From: Rikenellaceae bacterium
GTDB taxonomy: Bacteria; Bacteroidota; Bacteroidia; Bacteroidales; Rikenellaceae
DNA length: 35,358 nucleotides
Assembly (NCBI GenBank): GCA_029068395.1
Contig: JAIECQ010000015.1
Location: 1-35,358, forward strand
Direction of reading: 5' to 3'
The position numbers were made by a program, and so were the translations under genes. How positions within the stretch are numbered: the first letter of the stretch is position 1; every line of letters begins with the position of its first letter. Positions 1 through 31,972 of the stretch are shown piece by piece. The notes under the pieces were generated by a model. That model saw nothing but the letters and a program-made list of their open reading frames with translations. It was not told the origin of the DNA and made no database searches.

Positions 1-560
1 CATGCCCGGCATTACGAAGTATGCCGTAAGCCAAAATTCCTTGTGTCCGGGCTGAGGAACGAAGCCCGAGCGGCCCGGAGCCTCCGCCCACGGAGGGCCG
101 CAGCCCCGCACAGTAATATATATGACAGTGAAGTATGAACAGTGATGATGCACATGACTTTCATGCTGTGCCCTCCGCAGGCCCCGGGTCGCTCTCCGCT
201 GTGCCGGGGGTTACGGCTGTGCTGACCTTATGCTTTGCCGTGCTGCTGTTATTGTTTCTGCTTTGCTTCCGCGTTTTTCCGTCGAGAGTCCTGCCCCTGT
301 TGAATATCCTTCAGGCACTCACTTTAAGGGCCAAAAACAGCTATCCCATAAATGTGTGAGACGTATGTCGAAACACATTTATGGGATAGCTGTACTTATC
401 CGCTTAGTTGTTCCTCAAAAATATCAAAACGGGGTCCGTGACCCCTCCCCCGGAAGGGCCGCCGGAGGCAGTGCCAGCAAACCAAAACGGCAAGTCCAGC
501 AAACCATCACCGGCAGTGCCGGCACACCATCATCCGCAGTGCCGGCAAATAAACGGCACT
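1..560. repeat. Full-length copy 1 of dispersed intergenic repeat (5' GC-rich module, long hairpin, GGGGTC/GACCCC hairpin, degenerate ~23-bp tandem tail)
   Basis: Near-identical blocks at 28977-29540, partially at 21130-21397; starts catgcccggcattacgaagtatgccgtaagccaaaattcc as at 28718 and 28977. May extend left of the window. Confidence 0.85.
337..393. repeat. Perfect 21-bp inverted repeat (337-357 / 373-393) with 15-nt loop gagacgtatgtcgaa
   Basis: ACAGCTATCCCATAAATGTGT / ACACATTTATGGGATAGCTGT read directly. Confidence 0.95.
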
Positions 561-7670: not shown

Positions 7671-7690
7671 CAAGGCAAAAATATACCTTG

Positions 7691-10114
7691 ATGAGATACG
7701 GCTTAATTATATTCGCTTTAATATTGGTGTCGGGATGCGGCAGTGTCAGACTCGACGAAAAAAAATATGTCGATGCGGTCATGTCGGTATCGTTGCGGTC
7801 GGGTGACAGCTCCATGTTCCGCACACGAGCGCAAGACTCGCTTCTTAACAACTTCCCCGTATATTACGACTGGTGGCTTCAAGACGGCGGCGCGCAAGAC
7901 CTCTTCACCCTGCCGTTGCGCAAGTCACTGGCTTCCCGCATAAAAAAGGTGTCAGAACAGCTTGGCGTTCCCATGCCCGACCTGTCGACCAAAGGCGACA
8001 AAGAGCTGTTTTCGACATATCACAAGCTGTGCGAAAAGCGACGCGCCAAACGTCTCGAAAACATGCCTGACCGCATAGTCTTCACCAAATTCCGGCCGTT
8101 CCGTCCCCCTGTCTTCGCTGCCACCGAATCGGCAAGCGACTCCAGAGGCGAACGTAACTTCGTGGGAGGCGGACAAATGTCGATACTCAAAATGCGCGGC
8201 ATCTGGGGGCACGAACAACTGCTACTCCAGTCAGACAGCGGCATGGTCAGAGACCCCGACATAGACTTTGACGCACGCAAGCTGCTGTTTGCATGGAAGA
8301 AAGGCGCAGGCGACGATTACCACCTCTATGAGATGGACCTTTACACGCAGGCTATCAAGCAGATAAGCAAAGGCGCAGGATATGCCGACTATGAAGGGCG
8401 CTATCTGCCCGACGGTGGCATACTGTTTGCCTCCACGCGCGCGGCCACCTCACTGGGCGACATACCCACAGAGGTAAGTAACTTTTTCGTGTGCGACCGC
8501 AACGGCAATTACATGCGCCGCATAGGCTTCGACCAAGGCCACACCATATCGCCGTCAGTGTTAGAGGACGGACGTGTAATGTACACACGTTCAGACCATA
8601 ACGACAGAGGCAACATATTTGCCAGCCCCCTATTCGTGATGAACGGCGACGGCACCTCGCAGCAGGCCTTCTTCAGCATGACAGACCGTTTCCCCACCAC
8701 CCTGACGCACGCGCGCCAGATACCGTCAACCAACCGCATACTCACCATACTGACGGGATACCACTCGCCACAACACGGCAAGCTTGCCATCATCAACCCC
8801 GAGGGAGGGCGAGGCGGAGAAAACGGACTTATGATGGTCGCCCCATTGAGGGAGCCCAACGACACCGAAAAACTGCCGGTTGACATATACGGTCAATATG
8901 GCGAACAGTTTCAATACCCGTTCCCCATTGACAGAGAGAGCTTTTTGATATCATACTCGCCGCTGGGCTACAACACGGGCGAGCCCAAATTCGCCATCTA
9001 CTGGATGAACATGGAGGGTGAGCGCGAGCTGCTGGTTTCTGACCGCAGATACTCTTGCAACCAGCCTGTTATAATACGGTCGCGCACAAAACCGCGTCTT
9101 CGTGCCTCACACATCGACTATAGCAAGGAGACCGGCCAATACATGATACAAAACATATATGCCGGCAATTCGATGGTAGGAGTCAAACGCGGCAGCGTCA
9201 AGAAGTTACGCATTGTAGAGCTGATGTTCCGCAACGCCGGCATAGGCAAGCAGACGGTGAGCGGTCCCGGCGGCAGCTCACAGGTGACCACCCCGGTGGG
9301 TGTCGCAGGCACAAGCTGGGATGTAAAGCGCATACTCGGCCATGTCGACGTCATGCCAGACGGCTCGGCCTACTTCGAGGCTCCGGCACGCACACCGCTC
9401 TACTTTCAGGCGCTCGACAGCCTGGGTCATGTCATCGCCACCATGCGTAGCTGGTCGACCTTGCAGCCCGGAGAGTCGAGAGGTTGTGTAGGCTGCCACG
9501 AGAGCCACAACACCACCCCGCTGACGGCGTCGGCAATACCGCAGATAGCCTATCGCCCCATCGACAGCATCACCCCGGTGCCTCACCTCATGCCCGAGAA
9601 GGGGTTCAGTTACATAGAGAACATTCAGCCCATACTCGACCGCAACTGCGTGCGATGCCACAACGGCGCCGGCAACACACCCAACCTGTTAGGCACACTC
9701 ACCACCAAGGGCGAGGCGTCGAAACGACGTGTCAGCGAGTCGTATATAACACTGACACACGCACAGATGCGCAATAAAAACAAAGAGACGCTCACAGGCA
9801 ACGAATATCACCCCGACGTCAACTGGATAGGCAGCATGACCGACCCCATGCCGCTCAAGCCATACGCTGCCGGCTCGGCATCGAGCAAGCTGATAAGGCG
9901 TCTGCGTGAAGGCCACGGCAAGCTCGACAAGAGGCAGATTGAGACAATAGCCGCCTGGATAGACTTAGGTGCACCCTTTGCCGGCAGTTATACCGAGGCC
10001 AACAACTGGAACACCAACGAGATACGCACGTGGGACTATTACAGCCACAAACGCCATGTGGCCGAAGACGAAGACAAACGTAACGTCGAGGCATACATCA
10101 ACTCGCTCAGATAG
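7691..10114 (+). CDS. c-type-heme lipoprotein, HzsA-related / PD40 beta-propeller-like
   Basis: Lipobox LVSGC; propeller-like repeats (DPDIDFDARKLLFAW, ISPSVLEDGRVMYTRSD); two heme motifs CVGCH and CVRCH in the C-terminal half. Confidence 0.75.
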   Translation: MRYGLIIFALILVSGCGSVRLDEKKYVDAVMSVSLRSGDSSMFRTRAQDSLLNNFPVYYDWWLQDGGAQDLFTLPLRKSLASRIKKVSEQLGVPMPDLSTKGDKELFSTYHKLCEKRRAKRLENMPDRIVFTKFRPFRPPVFAATESASDSRGERNFVGGGQMSILKMRGIWGHEQLLLQSDSGMVRDPDIDFDARKLLFAWKKGAGDDYHLYEMDLYTQAIKQISKGAGYADYEGRYLPDGGILFASTRAATSLGDIPTEVSNFFVCDRNGNYMRRIGFDQGHTISPSVLEDGRVMYTRSDHNDRGNIFASPLFVMNGDGTSQQAFFSMTDRFPTTLTHARQIPSTNRILTILTGYHSPQHGKLAIINPEGGRGGENGLMMVAPLREPNDTEKLPVDIYGQYGEQFQYPFPIDRESFLISYSPLGYNTGEPKFAIYWMNMEGERELLVSDRRYSCNQPVIIRSRTKPRLRASHIDYSKETGQYMIQNIYAGNSMVGVKRGSVKKLRIVELMFRNAGIGKQTVSGPGGSSQVTTPVGVAGTSWDVKRILGHVDVMPDGSAYFEAPARTPLYFQALDSLGHVIATMRSWSTLQPGESRGCVGCHESHNTTPLTASAIPQIAYRPIDSITPVPHLMPEKGFSYIENIQPILDRNCVRCHNGAGNTPNLLGTLTTKGEASKRRVSESYITLTHAQMRNKNKETLTGNEYHPDVNWIGSMTDPMPLKPYAAGSASSKLIRRLREGHGKLDKRQIETIAAWIDLGAPFAGSYTEANNWNTNEIRTWDYYSHKRHVAEDEDKRNVEAYINSLR

Positions 10115-10171
10115 AAGGCCGCACTAAGCCCGCGACCACAACAACCGACAAACACAACAACAGCTAAAAAG

Positions 10172-11962
10172 ATGCTCGGAAAATATATTCACACAATAGT
10201 AATAGCAATAAGCACGCTGACACTGCTGTCATGCCGTCCTGTCGGCGTGCCCTCCTCTATCGTCTCGCTCACCGACGGCGACAACAAGGTGATACTGTCG
10301 GGCGACCGTCAGAGCGGCAAGGTGTGGCAGATGAATCAGCAGGGCTGGAAGACGGGCAGCACCTTTCTGTGCAGCTCCATCATCGACATAGCCACCAACG
10401 GCAAAGACCGCGTGTGGGTGCTCGGCAGCGAGAGCGACGGCCAGTGCCGGCTCTATGAGCTGTCATATCCGGGCATGCAAACCATACAGAGCCTCGCTGT
10501 AGGCCGAGGTGCCGCCTCTGTCACCTACGACAAGGAGGACGACCGGCTGTGGGTCGCATGCCGCGATCTTAAGCGGCTGTGGGAGGTTGACATAATGCGC
10601 TGGAGCGTTGTGGGCAAGCTCGACATGCCGCGTGAGGCGTCGTCTGTGGCCATTCGCGACAGCCTGCTCTATGTGGCGGGAAGGTTGCCCGAGATGGTGT
10701 CGGGACAAAAGGGCGCCGCGACATCGGTGTGCGTGTTTGACAAACGACGCAGCGCCTTGCGCAAGACCATAAATCTACCCAAAGGCTCCGTTTTAACCGG
10801 CGACATGGTAGCAAACGGCCGTTATGCCTACCTGACACACGTGTTGAGCCGCTACACCGTGCCTGCCATACGTCCTGAACATGGGTGGATAGCCTCTTCG
10901 GCCCTCTCGGTCATAGACATGGACTCTATGAAGCTGATAGCCACCGTGTTGTTAGACTCACCCGCCAGGGGAGCGGCCGGCGCCGGCGGCATGGCCGTAA
11001 GCCCTGACGGCAAAGAGCTGGCCATAGCCCTCTCGGGCATCAACAGCGTGATGGTCATAGACCTCGACGGACTCCATGCCAGGCTGAAATCATACAAAAC
11101 CGCCGACGGACGCCCCATACACGAAGACCTCGGCTTCCTTTACGGGCTGCGCAGGCGTTATCCCTCTGGCGGCAGAGGCACCGGCACACTGCTCTACCTC
11201 AACGAACACACACTGCTGGCCGGCAACCTATACAGCGGCAACATAACCGTCATCTCCGACCGTCCGCGCCGCTTCCGACAGGTAGGACGCGCCATAACAT
11301 CGACAGAGCAAGGACGCGGCGAGGCCTACTTCTCAGACGCCACACTCTCATACCAGGGATGGCTCAGCTGCGCCTCATGCCACGGCGCCGACGGACGCAG
11401 CGACGCCCTGACCCACATATATCCGGGCGACAGCATCTTCGGACGGTTCCTCACCCCCTCATTAGCCGGCGTCACCTACCGAAGCAGTCAAGAGGGTCTG
11501 AAAAGCGGCACGTTAGCCTACCGCGCCATGAGAGAGAAGCAAAACCGACTCAAACCCTCGCGTCGAAAGGGCGAACCCGAAGTGCTCCCCATAGAGGTGA
11601 CCTTAGAGGAGATGTGCTTTGAGGCGATACGCTCGCACCTCTTCACCGAGCCTCAGGACGGCGAGGCACACGCGTTGGCATCATACATATCGTCGCTGGA
11701 GCATCCCCGCTCGCCATATCTCAAAAACGGACGTCTCTCGGCACGCGCCGAAGCAGGCCTGTCGGTGTATGAAAGTCTCGGTTGCGCCTCATGCCACAAC
11801 GACGAAAAACCCCTCATAGGGCTGTGGAAGAGCGCCCCGTACATGCACGACGGACGCATGGCCACCCTTGAGGAGGTCATAAACAGCAGACACGGCATGA
11901 AAGATGCCAAGCTGACCGCCACCCAAAAAAGAGATCTCAAAGAGTATCTTCTGACCCTCTGA
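10172..11962 (+). CDS. Lipoprotein with N-terminal beta-propeller and C-terminal di-heme cytochrome c / MauG-like domain
   Basis: Lipobox LLSC; heme motifs CASCH (x2); APYMHDGRMATLEEVI typical of MauG/CcpA family C-terminus. Confidence 0.8.
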   Translation: MLGKYIHTIVIAISTLTLLSCRPVGVPSSIVSLTDGDNKVILSGDRQSGKVWQMNQQGWKTGSTFLCSSIIDIATNGKDRVWVLGSESDGQCRLYELSYPGMQTIQSLAVGRGAASVTYDKEDDRLWVACRDLKRLWEVDIMRWSVVGKLDMPREASSVAIRDSLLYVAGRLPEMVSGQKGAATSVCVFDKRRSALRKTINLPKGSVLTGDMVANGRYAYLTHVLSRYTVPAIRPEHGWIASSALSVIDMDSMKLIATVLLDSPARGAAGAGGMAVSPDGKELAIALSGINSVMVIDLDGLHARLKSYKTADGRPIHEDLGFLYGLRRRYPSGGRGTGTLLYLNEHTLLAGNLYSGNITVISDRPRRFRQVGRAITSTEQGRGEAYFSDATLSYQGWLSCASCHGADGRSDALTHIYPGDSIFGRFLTPSLAGVTYRSSQEGLKSGTLAYRAMREKQNRLKPSRRKGEPEVLPIEVTLEEMCFEAIRSHLFTEPQDGEAHALASYISSLEHPRSPYLKNGRLSARAEAGLSVYESLGCASCHNDEKPLIGLWKSAPYMHDGRMATLEEVINSRHGMKDAKLTATQKRDLKEYLLTL

Positions 11963-19689: not shown

Positions 19690-20042
19690 AACAACACTCT
19701 TTGGAGGGGTGACACAATAATGTGTAAAGATAATAAAACGACACGAATGGCAATGACAAAAATTCATATTTTGTTTCACAAAGGACATTTTATGAGAACA
19801 CAAGGTAAAACAATGAAGCGCATCCATCACATCCCAGACCCTCCACCTGTTTTGCCCGAAAAGATGAGGTCGTTTTTCCTTGCATGGATTTGCTCGCACG
19901 GCGTTGCCACGGCAGGGGTTGCACTGCATGGCTTTTGTGCCGTCAGAGGGGTTGCGGCCATTTCTTGTTCCCGTAGGCCTCCGTACCGGCATGGCTCTCG
20001 AAAAAAAAGCGAGGGGCGGCAAGACAATACATAGAGATAATT

Positions 20043-21129: not shown

Positions 21130-21397
21130 GCCGCCCTGTTTCCGCACCCTTTCCGCTGAGAGTCATGCCCCTGTTTAATATCTTTCAGACACCAACCCAA
21201 GTGCCAAAAACAGCTATTCCATAAATGTGTGAGACGTATGTCGAAACACATTTATGGAATAGCTGTACTTATTTTAGTTGTTCCTCAAAAATATCAAAAC
21301 GGGGTCCGTGACCCCTCCCCCGGAAGGGCCGCCGGAGGCAGTGCCAGCAATACAATACCGGCAGTGACCGCAATACATCCCCGGCAGTGTCGTGTGA
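21130..21397. repeat. Copy 2 (5'-truncated/diverged) of the dispersed intergenic hairpin repeat
   Basis: Shares gtttccgc...gagagtcatgcccctgtt, the long hairpin, ggggtccgtgacccctcccccggaagggccgccggaggcagtgccagcaa with copies 1 and 3. Confidence 0.85.
21210..21266. repeat. Perfect 21-bp inverted repeat (21210-21230 / 21246-21266), same 15-nt loop
   Basis: ACAGCTATTCCATAAATGTGT / ACACATTTATGGAATAGCTGT. Confidence 0.95.
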
Positions 21398-21400
21398 GTA

Positions 21401-23806
21401 TCAGAAGCGGCCTGCGTCTTCGGCGTTGCCTTTGACGACGTGGGCTGCGCTGAACTCCTTGCCGGCCTTGAAGTTGTAACGCAGCGTTATGCCGTAACGG
21501 CGTGCGCCGTCATAGGTGGTGCGGGCGTAAGCATGCTTGGAGTAGTCCGACTCGGCCACCTTGATGTAAGTGCCTGTGCTGACGATGTTGCGCACGTTGA
21601 GCACCAGTGACAACCTGCCGTCGAGGAAGCTCTTCTTGATGGAGCCGTCCATACCTGCCTGCGGACGATACAACAACATGTTACCCTGCAATGCGTTGCC
21701 GACACAGTACCCGTTAAGCTCTACTGACCACTTCTTGGGCAATGAAAACATGGTATTGACAGAGCCCTGATAAAACCAGTGTGTGCGTTTTACTCCCGAT
21801 ATGGTTGTGCTCATGGGACCGGTGGTGCCGTCTATACTTATGTCCCACCACTTGAAGGGGGTGAATGGCAGATAAGCGTTGAACATGAACGAGTTCTCGT
21901 TGTCGTAGTTGCGATATGTGAGCAGTATCATGTCGGGATTGTCGACATCTGGCAACATGACACGCTCGAAAGCCTTGTTGCGATAGGAGTAGTTGGCAGT
22001 GAACATATAGCTTCCCGCCAAAGTGAAGTTAAGGGTAACATTCTCGGCATAAGAGGGTTGCAGGTAAGGGTTACCCACCGATACGGTGACATTGTCGACC
22101 TTCACGCGCGAGGGATCTAACATGCTGAAACCGGGTCGCGATATGCTGCGTCGATAGTTGAGCGCCACGAGATGCTTCTTCTGCGGATTGATGGCATATG
22201 ACACCGCCGCCGAGGGGAAAACATCGGTGTAATTGCTGTGATGACTCTCGCTCTGCCTCAACGACTTGGGACGCATGTCGGTATTCTCTACACGCACACC
22301 TGCCGTGATGTTCCACCGTCCCAAAGAGGCCGAGGTGGTGGCATAGGCAGCCGCGACACCCTCGCGATAACGGTAATCGTCGCTGTAATCGAGCCTGTGA
22401 CTCCAGTTATGATTGTCGACAGAGGTATAATAGTCGTAAACACTCGAAAGTGTCGAATATGAGTATTTGGCACCATAACCTAACGACCACTTCTTGCTCA
22501 AACGCTTGTTAATGTCGATGCGCACGGTGTAAAAATCGTTGCGTATGTTGCTGATGTCATAGACATAGTCTAAGAGCGAGCCCATTGGCGTATAATCGGC
22601 CGTGGTGGTGTATGACCTGCCATTGGTGGCGGCGTAATGATAGTCGGCCACCACTAAAAGGTCAGAGCCCAAGGTGTCGAGCTGACGCCTGTAATTGAAC
22701 GACAGGTCGTGATTGTCGGAACGACAGTTCGGCGACAGTGAACTCATGCGCGTCAACAACTCGCGCCGAGCGATGACACCGTCAGAGACATTGTTGTAAG
22801 TATTACGATAGTTGCCCAGATGATAATCCAACCCTATGCTGTTGCGGTCGTCAAACCTGTAAACGCCCCTTATGTCGTATGTCATGGAGCGATACTTGTT
22901 GAGAGAGGCATACAGGGCACTGAGAGTGTCGCCGCTGCTACGGAAATAGGTATCCATGTCTATGTGCTCCGAGTAGTTGGTGCGCGAGTAAGAGAATCCC
23001 GTTGACAGAGAGAGCTTTTTGTGCATCACATTAATCCACGCCGAAGGATTGTATTTCAGATCAAGCGTGTCAGTGCGCTCGTAAGTCATTGACACATTGC
23101 CGAACACACCGTTAATGTTACGGTTGCGCAGGTTTATCTTGAGCACGGCCCCTCCCACGGCAGCATCGTACTTGGCGCCCGCCGACCGCACCACATCTAT
23201 GCTCTTGATGTCTTCGGCGTTGATGCCCTCTAAATAACGGAGCAGCTCGCCCGACGACATGGTCACGATGCGGTCGTTTATCATAACCTGAACACCGCCC
23301 TGCCCGTTTATCTTGATATCTTCGTTGCTGTCTATCCAAAGACCCGGCACATACCTCAACGCTTCGCGGGCATTGCGTCCCTCGGCCATCTTGCTGTCGC
23401 CCAAGGTAAGAGAGTAACCGTCGGCTCGATGGGTCACCGCACGGCCCCGCACCACCACCTCGTCAACCTCCAAAGCCTCTGGCTCCAACACCATGTCGCC
23501 CATGCTGACGGCACCTCTCACCACAACATCACGCCTCAATGTCTTGTAGCCCACAAACGACACCTCCATCACATAGTCGCCGTCGGCAATCTCCACCGAG
23601 AAAATACCGTCACTGCCTGTCGTGGTGCCGGCAATGTAGTCGCCCGCCTTGTCGGTAAAGACAACCGTGGCATACTCTATGCCTCCTCCGTCACTGCCCT
23701 TGACCGAGCCTGTCACTCTGCCACTGCCCGCAACATATACCTCATCAAAGCCCGACACCCTGCCGACCATCAAAACAAACACCGCAATCAAGTAAAAACA
23801 CTTCAT
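21401..23806 (-). CDS. TonB-dependent receptor-like outer membrane beta-barrel protein with CarboxypepD_reg-like N-terminal domain (paralog 1)
   Basis: Signal peptide MKCFYLIAVFVLMVGRVSG; VTGSVKGSDGGGIEYATVVF; plug-like region; barrel ending YGITLRYNFKAGKEF. Confidence 0.88.
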   Translation of the reverse strand: MKCFYLIAVFVLMVGRVSGFDEVYVAGSGRVTGSVKGSDGGGIEYATVVFTDKAGDYIAGTTTGSDGIFSVEIADGDYVMEVSFVGYKTLRRDVVVRGAVSMGDMVLEPEALEVDEVVVRGRAVTHRADGYSLTLGDSKMAEGRNAREALRYVPGLWIDSNEDIKINGQGGVQVMINDRIVTMSSGELLRYLEGINAEDIKSIDVVRSAGAKYDAAVGGAVLKINLRNRNINGVFGNVSMTYERTDTLDLKYNPSAWINVMHKKLSLSTGFSYSRTNYSEHIDMDTYFRSSGDTLSALYASLNKYRSMTYDIRGVYRFDDRNSIGLDYHLGNYRNTYNNVSDGVIARRELLTRMSSLSPNCRSDNHDLSFNYRRQLDTLGSDLLVVADYHYAATNGRSYTTTADYTPMGSLLDYVYDISNIRNDFYTVRIDINKRLSKKWSLGYGAKYSYSTLSSVYDYYTSVDNHNWSHRLDYSDDYRYREGVAAAYATTSASLGRWNITAGVRVENTDMRPKSLRQSESHHSNYTDVFPSAAVSYAINPQKKHLVALNYRRSISRPGFSMLDPSRVKVDNVTVSVGNPYLQPSYAENVTLNFTLAGSYMFTANYSYRNKAFERVMLPDVDNPDMILLTYRNYDNENSFMFNAYLPFTPFKWWDISIDGTTGPMSTTISGVKRTHWFYQGSVNTMFSLPKKWSVELNGYCVGNALQGNMLLYRPQAGMDGSIKKSFLDGRLSLVLNVRNIVSTGTYIKVAESDYSKHAYARTTYDGARRYGITLRYNFKAGKEFSAAHVVKGNAEDAGRF

Positions 23807-24046
23807 ACACAATCAATTAACAGCAATTAAAACAAACAGGACACAAATACCATACATCGCCCGACACTACTGCGCAAATAAGGCCGTAAAAAAAACATCT
23901 GTGTCCTATATAACTCATACATTTAACGCTTCTGCCGACATAAAGTTACAATACCGCACAACATACATCACACAACACTGATTATCAAGCTATTGCGCAC
24001 ACACCTTTCCTGTAGTCTTTACCCGAAGCGACACCCGCAATAAAAA

Positions 24047-26656: not shown

Positions 26657-26945
26657 CACATAATACATAAAAATAAATCATTATTTATTTTATCAAATAC
26701 AGCATACTACACACAACTATTTACAAAACAAATATTTAAATAAACAATATTATTCGTAAAAAAATACTATTTATCATATACAATTAAGTCATCACAAGCA
26801 TTGGCATGACTGTCTATTAAGAACAGATGCTTTTTGAAAGGGCTGCCCGTGCAGATCTTATCGGGAAAAAGCCAGATAGCAGCCCACCCCTTACGCAATC
26901 CCTCGGGGAAGAATCAAAGAAATCAAAGAACCAAAGTATTAATAT

Positions 26946-27450
26946 TTAGCGGACACAACGCACGCTAAAACCGCACTGCCTATTGTTGCCACCCACGCTC
27001 AAATCACTGCTGTTGAAGTACAGGTAGTACGCGCGGTTAGAACTGCCCGCAACTGACGACCAATAACGCCCGTACACACCCGCGTCGTACAACGTACCGG
27101 ACGAACCGGTGAGACGGCGACCGACAGCGGGAAACTCCACGGAATTAGAACCGGAGGTGAACTTGATATATCCATAATCAGAGTTGGTCCACCCGCCGCC
27201 GCGACTGACGGTACTACCGTTAATGAGAGCCTGAAACTCATCTTTAGTAGGCAGACGGTAACCCTCGGGGCACGGGTGGGTATTCCAGTTGCTGGGGTAA
27301 GTCGACGTGTTCCAAGACCCGCTTGGGGTAGCCCCGGAAGCCGACGCACCTGTGGTATTCCACGCCACATTGATGCCCCACTGGTAGAACTTACCGTGTG
27401 ACTCTGCACGTGTGCCACTGCACTGTGACGGCAGCTTGGTTGCGAAAGTA
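26946..27450 (-). pseudogene. Truncated Fib_succ_major-type (FISUMP) cassette, likely without its own N-terminus
   Basis: GKFYQWGINVAWNTTG...CPEGYRLPTKDEFQALING...GRYWSSVAGSSNRAYYLYFNSSDLSVGGNNRQCGFSVRCVR*; the open frame continues to 27698 into repeat DNA with no signal peptide. Confidence 0.6.
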
Positions 27451-27474
27451 GCGCCGCCGGAGGCCTGTTTGGCA

Positions 27475-27800
27475 TGTGCTGGCGCTGGCCCATCCCGCTC
27501 CGGTAGCGCGGTCTGAGTGAAACGAAACCGCACACTTTCATTTAGCCGAGATGCTTTTGCACAGGTTGTTTTTGCGCCCGCAGGCTTTTGTCCCGCATGG
27601 CTTTTACTCCGGCAGTCTTCCGCACCGGCAGGGCGGCGAGGCACGAGCCGCAACGGGCCGACCCTCCCCCCGCGGAGGCCCGTAATCCCGTCACGCAATT
27701 GTAGGCAGTGACTAAGTCACGGCAGTTATGTGCGTCACTTTCACGTCTTGCCCCCGCAGGCTCGGCCCGTGCTCCTTCACGCCAAATGGGTGTTAGGTGC
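27475..27800. repeat. Second intergenic repeat family (R2), copy 1
   Basis: gcgctggcccatc..cgctccgg..cggtctgagt..aaacgaaac...gagatgcttttgca...aacgggccgaccctccccccgcggaggcccgtaa...caggctcggcccgt, duplicated at 27957-28270. Confidence 0.85.
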
Positions 27801-28496: not shown

Positions 28497-28717
28497 CCGG
28501 CATTACGAAGTATGCCGTAAGCCAAAATTCCCTGTGCCGGGCTGAGGGACGAAGCCCGAGCGGCCCGGAGCCTCCCCAAACGGAGGGCCGCATATCGGTG
28601 ATTAATATATAGGGCGGTGAATTAGTGACAGCAGTGATGCTCTTCATTTTCATGCTGTGCCGGTGGTTGTGGCTGTACTTACCTATTATGTTTGCTGCGC
28701 TGCTGTTATGCTTGCTG
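28497..28717. repeat. 5' module of the dispersed repeat, tandem unit A
   Basis: ccggcattacgaagtatgccgtaagccaaaattcc...gggctgaggGacgaagcccgagcggcccggagcctcc, shared with positions 1-240. Confidence 0.85.
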
Positions 28718-28976
28718 CATGCCCGGCATAACGAAGTATGCCGTAAGCAAAAATTCCTTGTGCCCGGGCTGAGGAACGAAGCCCGAGCGGCCCGGAGCCT
28801 CCGCCCAACGGAGGGCCACATATCGGTGCATAATATGTATGGCGGTGAATTAGTCACGGCAGTGATGCTCGTCATTTTCTCGCTGTGCCCTCCGCAGGCC
28901 CCGGGTCGCTCTCCGCTGTGCCGGTGGTTACGGCTGTGCTGACCTTATGTTTGCTGCGCTGCTGTTATGCTTGCTG
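28718..28976. repeat. 5' module, tandem unit B
   Basis: catgcccggcataacgaagtatgccgtaagcaaaaattccttgtgcccgggctgaggaacgaagcccgagcggcccggagcctccgccc. Confidence 0.88.
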
Positions 28977-29540
28977 CATGTCCGGCATTACGAAGTATGC
29001 CGTAAGCCAAAATACCTTATGCCGGGCTGAGGAACGAAGCCCGAGCGGCCCGCACCTCGCGGTGGGCAGGAAATCCCCCCCAACGGAGGGCCGCAGCCCC
29101 GCACAGCAATATATGACAGTGAATTAGGAACGGTGATTATGCACATAACTTTCATGCTGTGCCCTCCGCAGGCCCCGCGTCGCTCTCCGCTGTGCCGGTG
29201 TTCGGCTGTGCGGCTTATGTTTGCAGCGCTGCTGTTATTGTTTCTGCTTTGCTTCCGCGTTTTTCCGTCGAGAGTCATGGCCCATGTTGAATATCTTCCA
29301 GGCACTCAACCCAAGGGCCAAAAACAGCTATTCCATAAATGTGTGAGACGTATGTCGAAACACATTTATGGGATAGCTGTACTTATCCGCTTAGTTTGCC
29401 CTCAAAAATATCAAAACGGGGTCCGCGACCCCTCCCCCGGAAGGGCCGCCGGAGGCAGTTTCAGCAATACATAACAGCAGTTCCAGCAAACCATCACCGG
29501 CAGTGACCGCAAGCCATCACCGGAGGCAGTGCCGTGATGT
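28977..29540. repeat. Full-length dispersed repeat, copy 3 (tandem unit C plus long hairpin and tail)
   Basis: Collinear with 1-560 over nearly its whole length. Confidence 0.88.
29324..29380. repeat. 21-bp inverted repeat (29324-29344 / 29360-29380) with one T.G position, same 15-nt loop
   Basis: ACAGCTATTCCATAAATGTGT / ACACATTTATGGGATAGCTGT. Confidence 0.95.
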
Positions 29541-29542
29541 CG

Positions 29543-31972
29543 TCAGAAGCGGCTTGCGTCTTCGGCGTTACCTTTGACGACCTGAGCGGCTCGGAAATCT
29601 TTTCCTGTCTTGAAATTGTACTTTAACGATATGCCATACGAACGGGAGCCTGCCGACTGCCATGAGAATATCCTTTTGCGATAAGAAGGCTCGTCTATCA
29701 ACATGCTTGTCTTGGTGTAAACAATTCCCTTAACCTCGGCCATCAACGTGAGCTTACCATCTAAGAATGTCTTTTTGACAGAGGCATCCATCGACGCCAC
29801 AGGCCTGTCTACCACTATGTTGCCCTGTATCATATTGCCGGCACACCAGCCCGACATCTCGACAATCCATTTCTTGGGCAACAAAAATGTCATGTTTGCC
29901 ATTCCCCGATAAAACCACTTTGAACGCTCACGCCCCATAAATGTGCTCTGCATCAGCCCCGAGCCACCCGAGATATTGAAATTCCACCATTTGAAAGGAT
30001 TAAAAGGCAGATAAGCATTGAATATCAATATGTCTTGCTTGTCAATATTATCATTCTTGTACATCACAATCTCAGGGTTGTTCTCGTCAATGACGGCCAC
30101 CTGGGCAAACAGGTCCTTGTCGCCCTCATAAGCAGCCGTCAACATATACCTGCCGGCCAAAGTGAAGTTGAGCGACACGTTATTGGAATAAGACGGCTTC
30201 AAATAGGGGTTGCCCACCGCAACAGAAATGTTATCAATAGGCTGACGCCGAGGGTTGAGCATCGCGAAGCCGGGACGACGAATGCTTCGGCGATAACTCA
30301 TCGCCGCCACATAATCGCCTTTGGCAGTCAAGAGATAGGACAACGAAGCCGAAGGGAAAAAGTCGGTGTAATTGTTATGATGGTTCTCGCTCTGCTTCAG
30401 CGATGTGGGACGCAGGTCGGTGTTCTCTACACGCAATCCGGCCATGATGTTCAACCTGCCGACACGACCTGTCGCGCTGGCATACGCCGCCGCAATACCC
30501 TCGCGGTAACGATAATCATCACTGTAAACATCGTCATACACCCACTCAGTGCCCTGCTCTGACGAGTAATATTCAAAGACACTCGACATCTTGGAGTAAG
30601 AATACTTGGCCCCGTAACTGAGCGACCACTTGGTATTGAAACGCTTGGTGACATCTATGCGCGCTGTGTAAAAGTCATTCTTAAGCAGACTTGCAGACTT
30701 CACATAATCAAGCACTTTCACCGCATCTAACTGCTGCATCAACTCCGAAATGTTGGTCTCCCAGCTGTTGGAGCGATGATAGTCGGCCACCAGCAAGAGG
30801 TCGGAACCCAACGAGTCTAACGTGCGACGATAATTGACCGACAGGTCGTGCGTCTTGCTCAAATCACTGGGCGACAACGATTTTGTGGTCGCATAGTTCA
30901 TCAAATCGCCATACGAACGGCCATAGCCGACAGAAGAGGAGAAATTATCTTCATCGCTTGGCGAACGACGAAAATCGTAATCGACCCCCACGCTGTTTCG
31001 CTCGTCGATGTTGTAAACGCCCCTTAACGTGTAATTATAAGAGTGTTGGCCGTTGTTCAATACCGACTCTGAGTTTATCGTATCACCCAGCTGCCTGAAA
31101 CATGAATACTGACGCAAGAACTGCGAATACTGACGCCGCGCATATGTAAAACCTGTCGAAAGCGATAACTTGCCATACATGGCGTTCACCCACACCGACG
31201 GCATCACCAGTGTTGTCAAGGTGTCGGTGCGTCTGTAATTCATAGACACAGTGCCAAACACGCCCTCTACCTTGCTGCGGTTGCGCAGGTTAATCTTAAG
31301 CACCGCACCGCTTGCCGAGGCGTCATACTTTGCCCCTGCCGAACGCACCACGTCTATGCTCTTGACATCCTCGGCGTTTATCGACTCCAGATAGTTCAAC
31401 AAATCGGTCGACGACATGGTCATCACCCTGTCGTTTATCATCACCATCACTCCCCCCTGGCCGTTCACTGTTATCTGGTCGTTGTTGTCGATCCACACCC
31501 CCGGCACATACTTCAATGCCTCTCGCAGGTTGCGCCCCTCGGCCACCTTGCTGTCTCCCAACGTCAGCGAGTAACCGTCTGGCCGCTGCGTCACCATACG
31601 GCCCTGCACCACCACCTCGTCTACCTCCATAGCCTCGGGATGCAGCACCACATCACCCAAATCGATAGCGTCTTTAACCACCACCCTGCTGACCGACGAC
31701 TTGTATCCGATGTAAGACACCTCCATGTCATACTCCCCCGCCGCCAGCTCAACAGAGAAAACACCCTCCCCGTCGGTGGTCGCCCCTGCCACATAGGCGC
31801 CATCCTTTGAGAATACCACCGTGGCATACTCGACAGAGATGCCGTTCGTGCCTTTCACACAACCGGCAACAACCTTCTTCTCATCAGCAAACACCATGTC
31901 AGCCCCACTGTGACCGACACCAAACACCCGCCCCGACAGACACACAAACACAAAGAAAAGCAGATTCTTCAT
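29543..31972 (-). CDS. TonB-dependent receptor-like outer membrane beta-barrel protein (paralog 3)
   Basis: Signal peptide; VAGCVKGTNGISVEYATVVFSKDGAYVAGATTDGEGVFSVELAAGEYDMEVSYIGYKSS; tail GKDFRAAQVVKGNAEDASRF. Confidence 0.88.
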   Translation of the reverse strand: MKNLLFFVFVCLSGRVFGVGHSGADMVFADEKKVVAGCVKGTNGISVEYATVVFSKDGAYVAGATTDGEGVFSVELAAGEYDMEVSYIGYKSSVSRVVVKDAIDLGDVVLHPEAMEVDEVVVQGRMVTQRPDGYSLTLGDSKVAEGRNLREALKYVPGVWIDNNDQITVNGQGGVMVMINDRVMTMSSTDLLNYLESINAEDVKSIDVVRSAGAKYDASASGAVLKINLRNRSKVEGVFGTVSMNYRRTDTLTTLVMPSVWVNAMYGKLSLSTGFTYARRQYSQFLRQYSCFRQLGDTINSESVLNNGQHSYNYTLRGVYNIDERNSVGVDYDFRRSPSDEDNFSSSVGYGRSYGDLMNYATTKSLSPSDLSKTHDLSVNYRRTLDSLGSDLLLVADYHRSNSWETNISELMQQLDAVKVLDYVKSASLLKNDFYTARIDVTKRFNTKWSLSYGAKYSYSKMSSVFEYYSSEQGTEWVYDDVYSDDYRYREGIAAAYASATGRVGRLNIMAGLRVENTDLRPTSLKQSENHHNNYTDFFPSASLSYLLTAKGDYVAAMSYRRSIRRPGFAMLNPRRQPIDNISVAVGNPYLKPSYSNNVSLNFTLAGRYMLTAAYEGDKDLFAQVAVIDENNPEIVMYKNDNIDKQDILIFNAYLPFNPFKWWNFNISGGSGLMQSTFMGRERSKWFYRGMANMTFLLPKKWIVEMSGWCAGNMIQGNIVVDRPVASMDASVKKTFLDGKLTLMAEVKGIVYTKTSMLIDEPSYRKRIFSWQSAGSRSYGISLKYNFKTGKDFRAAQVVKGNAEDASRF

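What the first reader, a model, noticed from the sequence alone, without database searches (positions are those of the whole stretch)
337..393. Long hairpin present three times with an invariant loop and a covarying stem position
Seen: a 21-bp stem / 15-nt loop occurs at 337-393, 21210-21266 and 29324-29380. The loop GAGACGTATGTCGAA is identical in all three. The one variable stem position is C345-G385 (C-G) in copy 1, T21218-A21258 (U-A) in copy 2 and T29332-G29372 (U.G) in copy 3, the pattern expected if pairing is maintained. The wobble form is tolerated only when read as + strand RNA (A.C on the - strand). Inference: the hairpin may act as RNA or as a folded single-strand DNA target. Three copies are few, so this is suggestive only.
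Basis: partly seen in the sequence, partly recalled or inferred. Interest (0 to 1): 0.72.

Follow-up and report, generated by a model that had tools for sequence, protein, structure and literature searches.

The report
Covarying hairpin at repeat-island borders
A gut bacterium (an uncultured relative of Rikenellaceae) carries about 146 copies of a DNA hairpin whose stem sequence changes freely but always stays paired; the hairpins mark the outer borders of repeat islands that store many hypervariable gene fragments made by a single mutation-generating retroelement.

Summary
The three window hairpins belong to a family of about 146 in this 2.08 Mb draft genome and at least 66 in one sister species. 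Among 39 distinct 61-nt copies 99.2% of cells pair, 14 of 23 stem pairs show double changes, and sliding the partner destroys the signal. The loop is not invariant: a GAC/GTC clamp inside a GA/GAA internal loop is fixed, the tetraloop varies. The hairpins are inverted, outward-pointing borders of repeat islands carrying mostly 5'-truncated variable-region cassettes of one diversity-generating retroelement (DGR; reverse transcriptase, template and adenine-biased mutation found). Border positions are conserved between the two species, but border sequences are scrambled (concerted evolution) and some hairpins are flipped. The hairpin is probably not the DGR's own target hairpin: a related genome has the DGR without it, full-length target genes examined lack it, and it does not predict cassette freshness. 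Best reading: a structure-recognised border element that works like REP/BIME palindromes, but is not one (no GTAG, no Y1 transposase found). Whether DNA or RNA folds is unresolved.

The parts
337..393 (+). hairpin copy 1 (21-bp stem; GA/GAA internal loop, GAC/GTC clamp, tetraloop GTAT)
1..548 (+). right border of a repeat island cut by the contig start: one ~255-bp GC-rich unit (about 1-261), hairpin, GC-rich tail ending in ~21-bp GGCAGTGCCAGCAA repeats
431..445 (-). terminator-like GGGGTC-ACG-GACCCC + GTTTTGATAT in the tail, reading into the island (count not above shuffles)
21210..21266 (+). hairpin copy 2, solo border without repeat unit or cassette
21267..21393 (+). tail of copy 2, abutting the 3' end of the outer-membrane beta-barrel gene 21401-23812 (-)
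29324..29380 (+). hairpin copy 3 (T.G wobble at 29332/29372), right border of the island
29381..29534 (+). tail of copy 3, abutting the 3' end of the beta-barrel gene 29543-31972 (-)
28497..29300 (+). about three tandem ~255-bp GC-rich repeat units inside the island
26946..27698 (-). DGR target cassette (FISUMP domain, TIGR02145), 5'-truncated; variable region about 26949-27143
26909..26938 (-). T-rich motif that follows most DGR variable regions in this genome

Best explanation
The hairpin is the folded core of the border of a dispersed, genus-restricted family of repeat islands. SHOWN: borders are inverted and point outward; stems change in compensated fashion; the tip (GA/GAA internal loop plus GAC/GTC clamp) is fixed while the tetraloop is free; border positions are shared by two species although border sequences are exchanged among sites. 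INFERRED: a protein, not yet identified, recognises the folded loop strand by its tip and long helix regardless of stem sequence, much as REP/BIME palindromes are recognised, and this keeps pairing under selection; homologous exchange between the ~146 borders then swaps hairpins among fixed sites, and strand switching within the palindrome occasionally flips one. The fold is more likely made in single-stranded or cruciform DNA than in RNA, but this is not settled.
For: Copy number and fold. Covariation: 99.2% of cells paired, 14 of 23 stem pairs with double changes, 0 of 500 shuffles reach the score; 98-99% paired in register against 25-62% slid in four length classes. Island architecture tail-hairpin-[units]n ... 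VR-hairpin-tail, mirrored. Positions conserved: 33 of 129 outside flanks lie ~450 bp from a hairpin in G002, 0 of 40 controls. Orthologous hairpins no more alike than random pairs (0.709 against 0.693, p = 0.11); ortholog-specific similarity begins only at about +160 nt. Flips at 14 sites. DNA rather than RNA: flips, solo and unit-side borders without a gene, no conserved Bacteroidales-type promoter.
Against: No recogniser protein found; no Y1 transposase in the assembled 84% of the genome. No clean empty site or target duplication seen, so mobility of the islands is not shown. Orientation is biased (161 standard to 14 flipped) and gene 3' ends face borders 88 to 40, which also fit a role in transcription. 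Palindrome repair by strand switching could perfect stems without selection.
Confidence: 0.45

Rival explanations
1. RNA hairpin: the 3' part of transcripts leaving the island (cassette mRNA, unit RNA), acting as 3' protection, processing site or insulator; on the inward strand the hairpin plus T4 and the tail act as terminators of neighbouring genes.
For: G.T exceeds A.C 88 to 16 over copies; standard orientation 161 to 14; neighbouring gene 3' ends face borders 88 to 40; a run of four T follows the hairpin on the inward strand in 127 of 177 copies and the tail holds a terminator-like hairpin.
Against: By events the wobble bias is not significant (24 to 13) and favours the outward strand, which lacks a T run, so terminator and wobble evidence conflict. 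Flips persist. No conserved promoter. Terminator scan not above shuffles.
Confidence: 0.28
2. DGR target-recognition hairpin: a cruciform after the variable region that promotes mutagenic retrohoming, as in Bordetella phage BPP-1.
For: BPP-1 shows the same logic, stem structure not sequence, loop sequence-specific (PMC3240598); 33 of 100 variable-region tails have a hairpin 151-213 nt downstream; the hairpin is absent from the template locus.
Against: Spacing ~200 nt against 4-34 bp; most hairpins have no variable region beside them; freshness of variable regions does not differ (2.57 against 3.33 deviations, p = 0.17); 0 of 9 VRs in full-length target genes have one against 27 of 71 truncated cassettes (several of the 9 are internal or have short downstream sequence); G001 has the RT and 15 VR ends but no hairpin, G002 the hairpin but no RT found.
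Confidence: 0.07
3. No selected function: a long palindrome perfected by replication strand switching (quasipalindrome correction), which mimics compensatory change and also flips the loop.
For: Flipped hairpins with perfect arms are the footprint of strand switching; recombinant hairpins with mismatched arms exist.
Against: The tip and the 10 bp next to it are conserved over two species while mid-stem varies, so sequence-specific constraint exists; mismatched chimeras exist but are rare; copy-level wobble asymmetry.
Confidence: 0.2

Closest known systems
REP / BIME repetitive extragenic palindromes with RAYT (TnpA-REP)
   Same: Over 100 intergenic palindromes, inverted pairs bounding a segment, complementary mutations preserving pairing, irregular stem or tip, strand-specific folded ssDNA recognition known for REPs (PMC2817692, PMC8266576)
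   Different: 57-61 nt rather than about 20-40; no GTAG foot; no Y1 transposase found; bounds 1.5-2 kb islands carrying cassettes rather than short spacers
DGR target hairpin/cruciform (Bordetella phage BPP-1)
   Same: Stem sequence free, loop sequence fixed, lies downstream of a variable region in about a third of cases, absent at the template
   Different: 21-23 bp stem against 7-10; ~200 nt against 4-34 bp; most copies not beside a variable region; dissociates from the RT among relatives
Silent-cassette systems (pilE/pilS of Neisseria; from own knowledge)
   Same: Many 5'-truncated variable cassettes with conserved 3' flank, a few full-length genes, exchange among copies
   Different: Cassettes are diversified by a DGR; transfer of cassettes into full-length genes not shown
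Intergenic stem-loop repeat families (PMC2267715; ERIC, NEMIS from own knowledge)
   Same: Dispersed intergenic hairpins with conserved fold
   Different: No match to any Rfam family; border arrangement

Membership tests
REP/BIME (RAYT-associated) | over 100 intergenic palindromic copies, inverted pairs | tested here: met
   about 146 copies, inverted borders
REP/BIME (RAYT-associated) | GTAG (or near) tetranucleotide at the 5' foot | tested here: not met
   foot is GGCCAAAA-AC...GT-ACTTAT
REP/BIME (RAYT-associated) | cognate Y1 transposase (PF01797) in genome | tested here: not met
   none in the assembled genome, about 84% complete
DGR target hairpin | within 4-34 bp of the variable region | tested here: not met
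   151-213 nt from the T-rich tail
DGR target hairpin | 7-10 bp GC-rich stem with GRNA tetraloop | tested here: not met
   21-23 bp AT-rich stem; tetraloops GTAT, GCAT, CCGA, GATA and others
DGR target hairpin | required for retrohoming | not testable with these tools
   only indirect: freshness test negative
Rfam RNA family | match at gathering threshold | tested here: not met
   0 matches in the window
Intrinsic transcription terminator | short GC-rich stem followed directly by T run | tested here: inconclusive
   outward strand no T run; inward strand T4 after the hairpin; tail hairpin matches but not above shuffles
DGR (for the associated system) | RT next to a template repeat, variable repeats with adenine-specific differences | tested here: met
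   RT 467 aa with IGNLTSQ and YVDD beside TR; A sites differ 43% against 7-13%, entropy 1.26 against 0.33 bits, p 4e-16

The most novel reading that the evidence does not exclude
The islands are a silent archive: one DGR keeps hypermutating about 130 truncated lectin cassettes, and the hairpin borders (as cruciforms or folded ssDNA) promote their exchange and transfer into a few full-length surface genes, joining mutagenic retrohoming to cassette-based antigenic variation.
Probability: 0.12. Interest if true: 0.85.

Novelty: new variant of a known kind. Interest (0 to 1): 0.55.

Why it matters
It is an unusually clean natural case of a bacterial hairpin with fixed tip and freely covarying stem, fixed positions and exchanged sequences across two species, so structure recognition can be tested directly. 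It also bounds what looks like a very large DGR cassette repertoire: 136 variable-region ends with one RT found, against 15 targets over nine loci in the well studied Thiohalocapsa PB-PSB1 (PMC10907252).

Tried and rejected
Rfam scan: nothing. Phage, plasmid and viral-contig searches: nothing. Y1/RAYT mobility: no transposase found. DGR target hairpin: rejected on spacing, freshness, association and dissociation among relatives. Precise empty sites: only an imprecise presence/absence difference near window 19794-20036 and decayed ends in G002. Hairpin-only swapping: rejected, the whole border to about +160 nt is exchanged. Conserved promoter in the border: none. First covariance model R1 used only 16 pairs because MAFFT misaligned the outer stems; pair counts were therefore made on an ungapped length class. 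A first count of flips mixed in reverse-strand matches and was redone.

Full report
OBSERVATION. The three hairpins are exactly where and as described, and each is far more stable than shuffles of the same sequence. A 24-nt core search gives 66 copies and a covariance model about 146 (149 rows, three of them reverse-strand or end fragments). Rfam has no match in the window.

PAIRING. Distinct stems of 21, 22 and 23 bp occur with the same tip. On 39 distinct 61-mers from two species 99.2% of cells pair, 14 of 23 stem pairs have changes on both sides, several with three or four Watson-Crick types, and the score is 0.330 against 0.095 (sd 0.009) in shuffles and 0.04-0.08 with slid partners. The shuffle control does not remove relatedness, but slid partners share it. 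The 3-bp GAC/GTC clamp never varies there, the tetraloop does (27 loop forms overall). The internal loop GA/GAA could form tandem sheared G.A pairs only on the loop strand (inference). A second tip type, CGCA-C-GTC-NNNN-GAC-TGCG, occurs at a few sites in G002 only.

STRAND. G.T/T.G against A.C/C.A is 88 to 16 over copies, 55 to 15 over distinct hairpins, and 24 to 13 by a rough count of independent events (p = 0.10; some of the 24 lie outside the canonical stem). This is suggestive, not proof, of a functional loop strand.

ARCHITECTURE. Mapping about 387 kb of the genome shows islands of fixed design: tail, hairpin pointing out, GC-rich ~255-bp units, a variable-region cassette with a T-rich motif, hairpin pointing out, tail, or the mirror image; also solo borders. 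In the window, copy 3 bounds an island with three units and a cassette (26946-27698), copy 1 is a border cut by the contig start, copy 2 is solo. Gene 3' ends face borders 88 to 40.

THE ASSOCIATED DGR. One RT (C108) lies directly after a template repeat. Variable regions differ from the template at 43% of adenines and 7-13% of other bases; entropy 1.26 against 0.33 bits. The genome has 136 variable-region ends, sister genomes 15, 44 and 5. Most cassettes examined are 5'-truncated, but long tandem-domain genes exist.

IS THE HAIRPIN PART OF THE DGR? The BPP-1 precedent made this the obvious idea. It fares badly: spacing, association, freshness of variable regions, absence from the full-length target genes examined (0 of 9 against 27 of 71, p = 0.025; several of the nine are internal or have little downstream sequence), and dissociation among relatives: G001 has RT (70% identical) without hairpin, G002 hairpin without RT found. 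A small hairpin about 45 nt after the variable region is a better candidate (by eye).

EVOLUTION. Of 129 outside flanks, 33 match G002 at about 450 bp from a hairpin, 0 of 40 controls: positions are old. Yet at 32 orthologous sites, with flanks 88% identical, hairpins are no more alike than random pairs, and this holds for the whole border up to about +160 nt. So borders exchange sequence, by ectopic recombination (inference), while staying in place and staying paired. Hairpins are flipped relative to their flanks at 3 of about 120 (G000) and 11 of about 60 (G002) sites.

CONCLUSION. Shown: a large, covarying, position-conserved border-hairpin family. Inferred: tip-plus-helix recognition by an unknown protein, DNA more likely than RNA. 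It works like REP/BIME palindromes but fails two membership features tested. Limits: draft metagenome assemblies that break at these repeats, two species, no transcript data.

Noticed in passing
G000:C108 (L081:222-1851) and about 136 sites genome-wide, incl. window 26946-27698: A single DGR (RT and template) with about 136 variable-region ends, mostly 5'-truncated cassettes plus a few full-length tandem FISUMP genes; unusually large.
   Followed up: partly
L334 (C133), L340 (C22), L342 (C146), L343 (C140), L345 (C91): Long ORFs (343-951 aa, cut by locus edges) with DGR variable regions, candidate expressed targets, none with the border hairpin found downstream.
   Followed up: partly
about 45 nt after variable regions in G000; L182 about 1440-1515 in G001: Small hairpins (CTTGCGTAAG; GATGTCC-TGCGAAGC-GGACATC) at the place where DGR target hairpins are expected.
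   Followed up: no
L254, L256, L142, L308 (G002): A second border-hairpin type with tip CGCA-C-GTC-NNNN-GAC-TGCG replaces the first at orthologous sites.
   Followed up: partly
tip of every hairpin, e.g. window 360-369: GACNNNNGTC is an interrupted palindrome of the kind read by dimeric DNA-binding proteins or restriction enzymes.
   Followed up: no
window 7688-11962: Protein matching Pfam HZS_alpha (1.5e-32) beside a cytochrome-c-type protein, unexpected in a gut Bacteroidales genome.
   Followed up: no
G003 loci L180, L183, L185: The GC-rich repeat unit exists without any hairpin of this family in a third species of the genus.
   Followed up: partly
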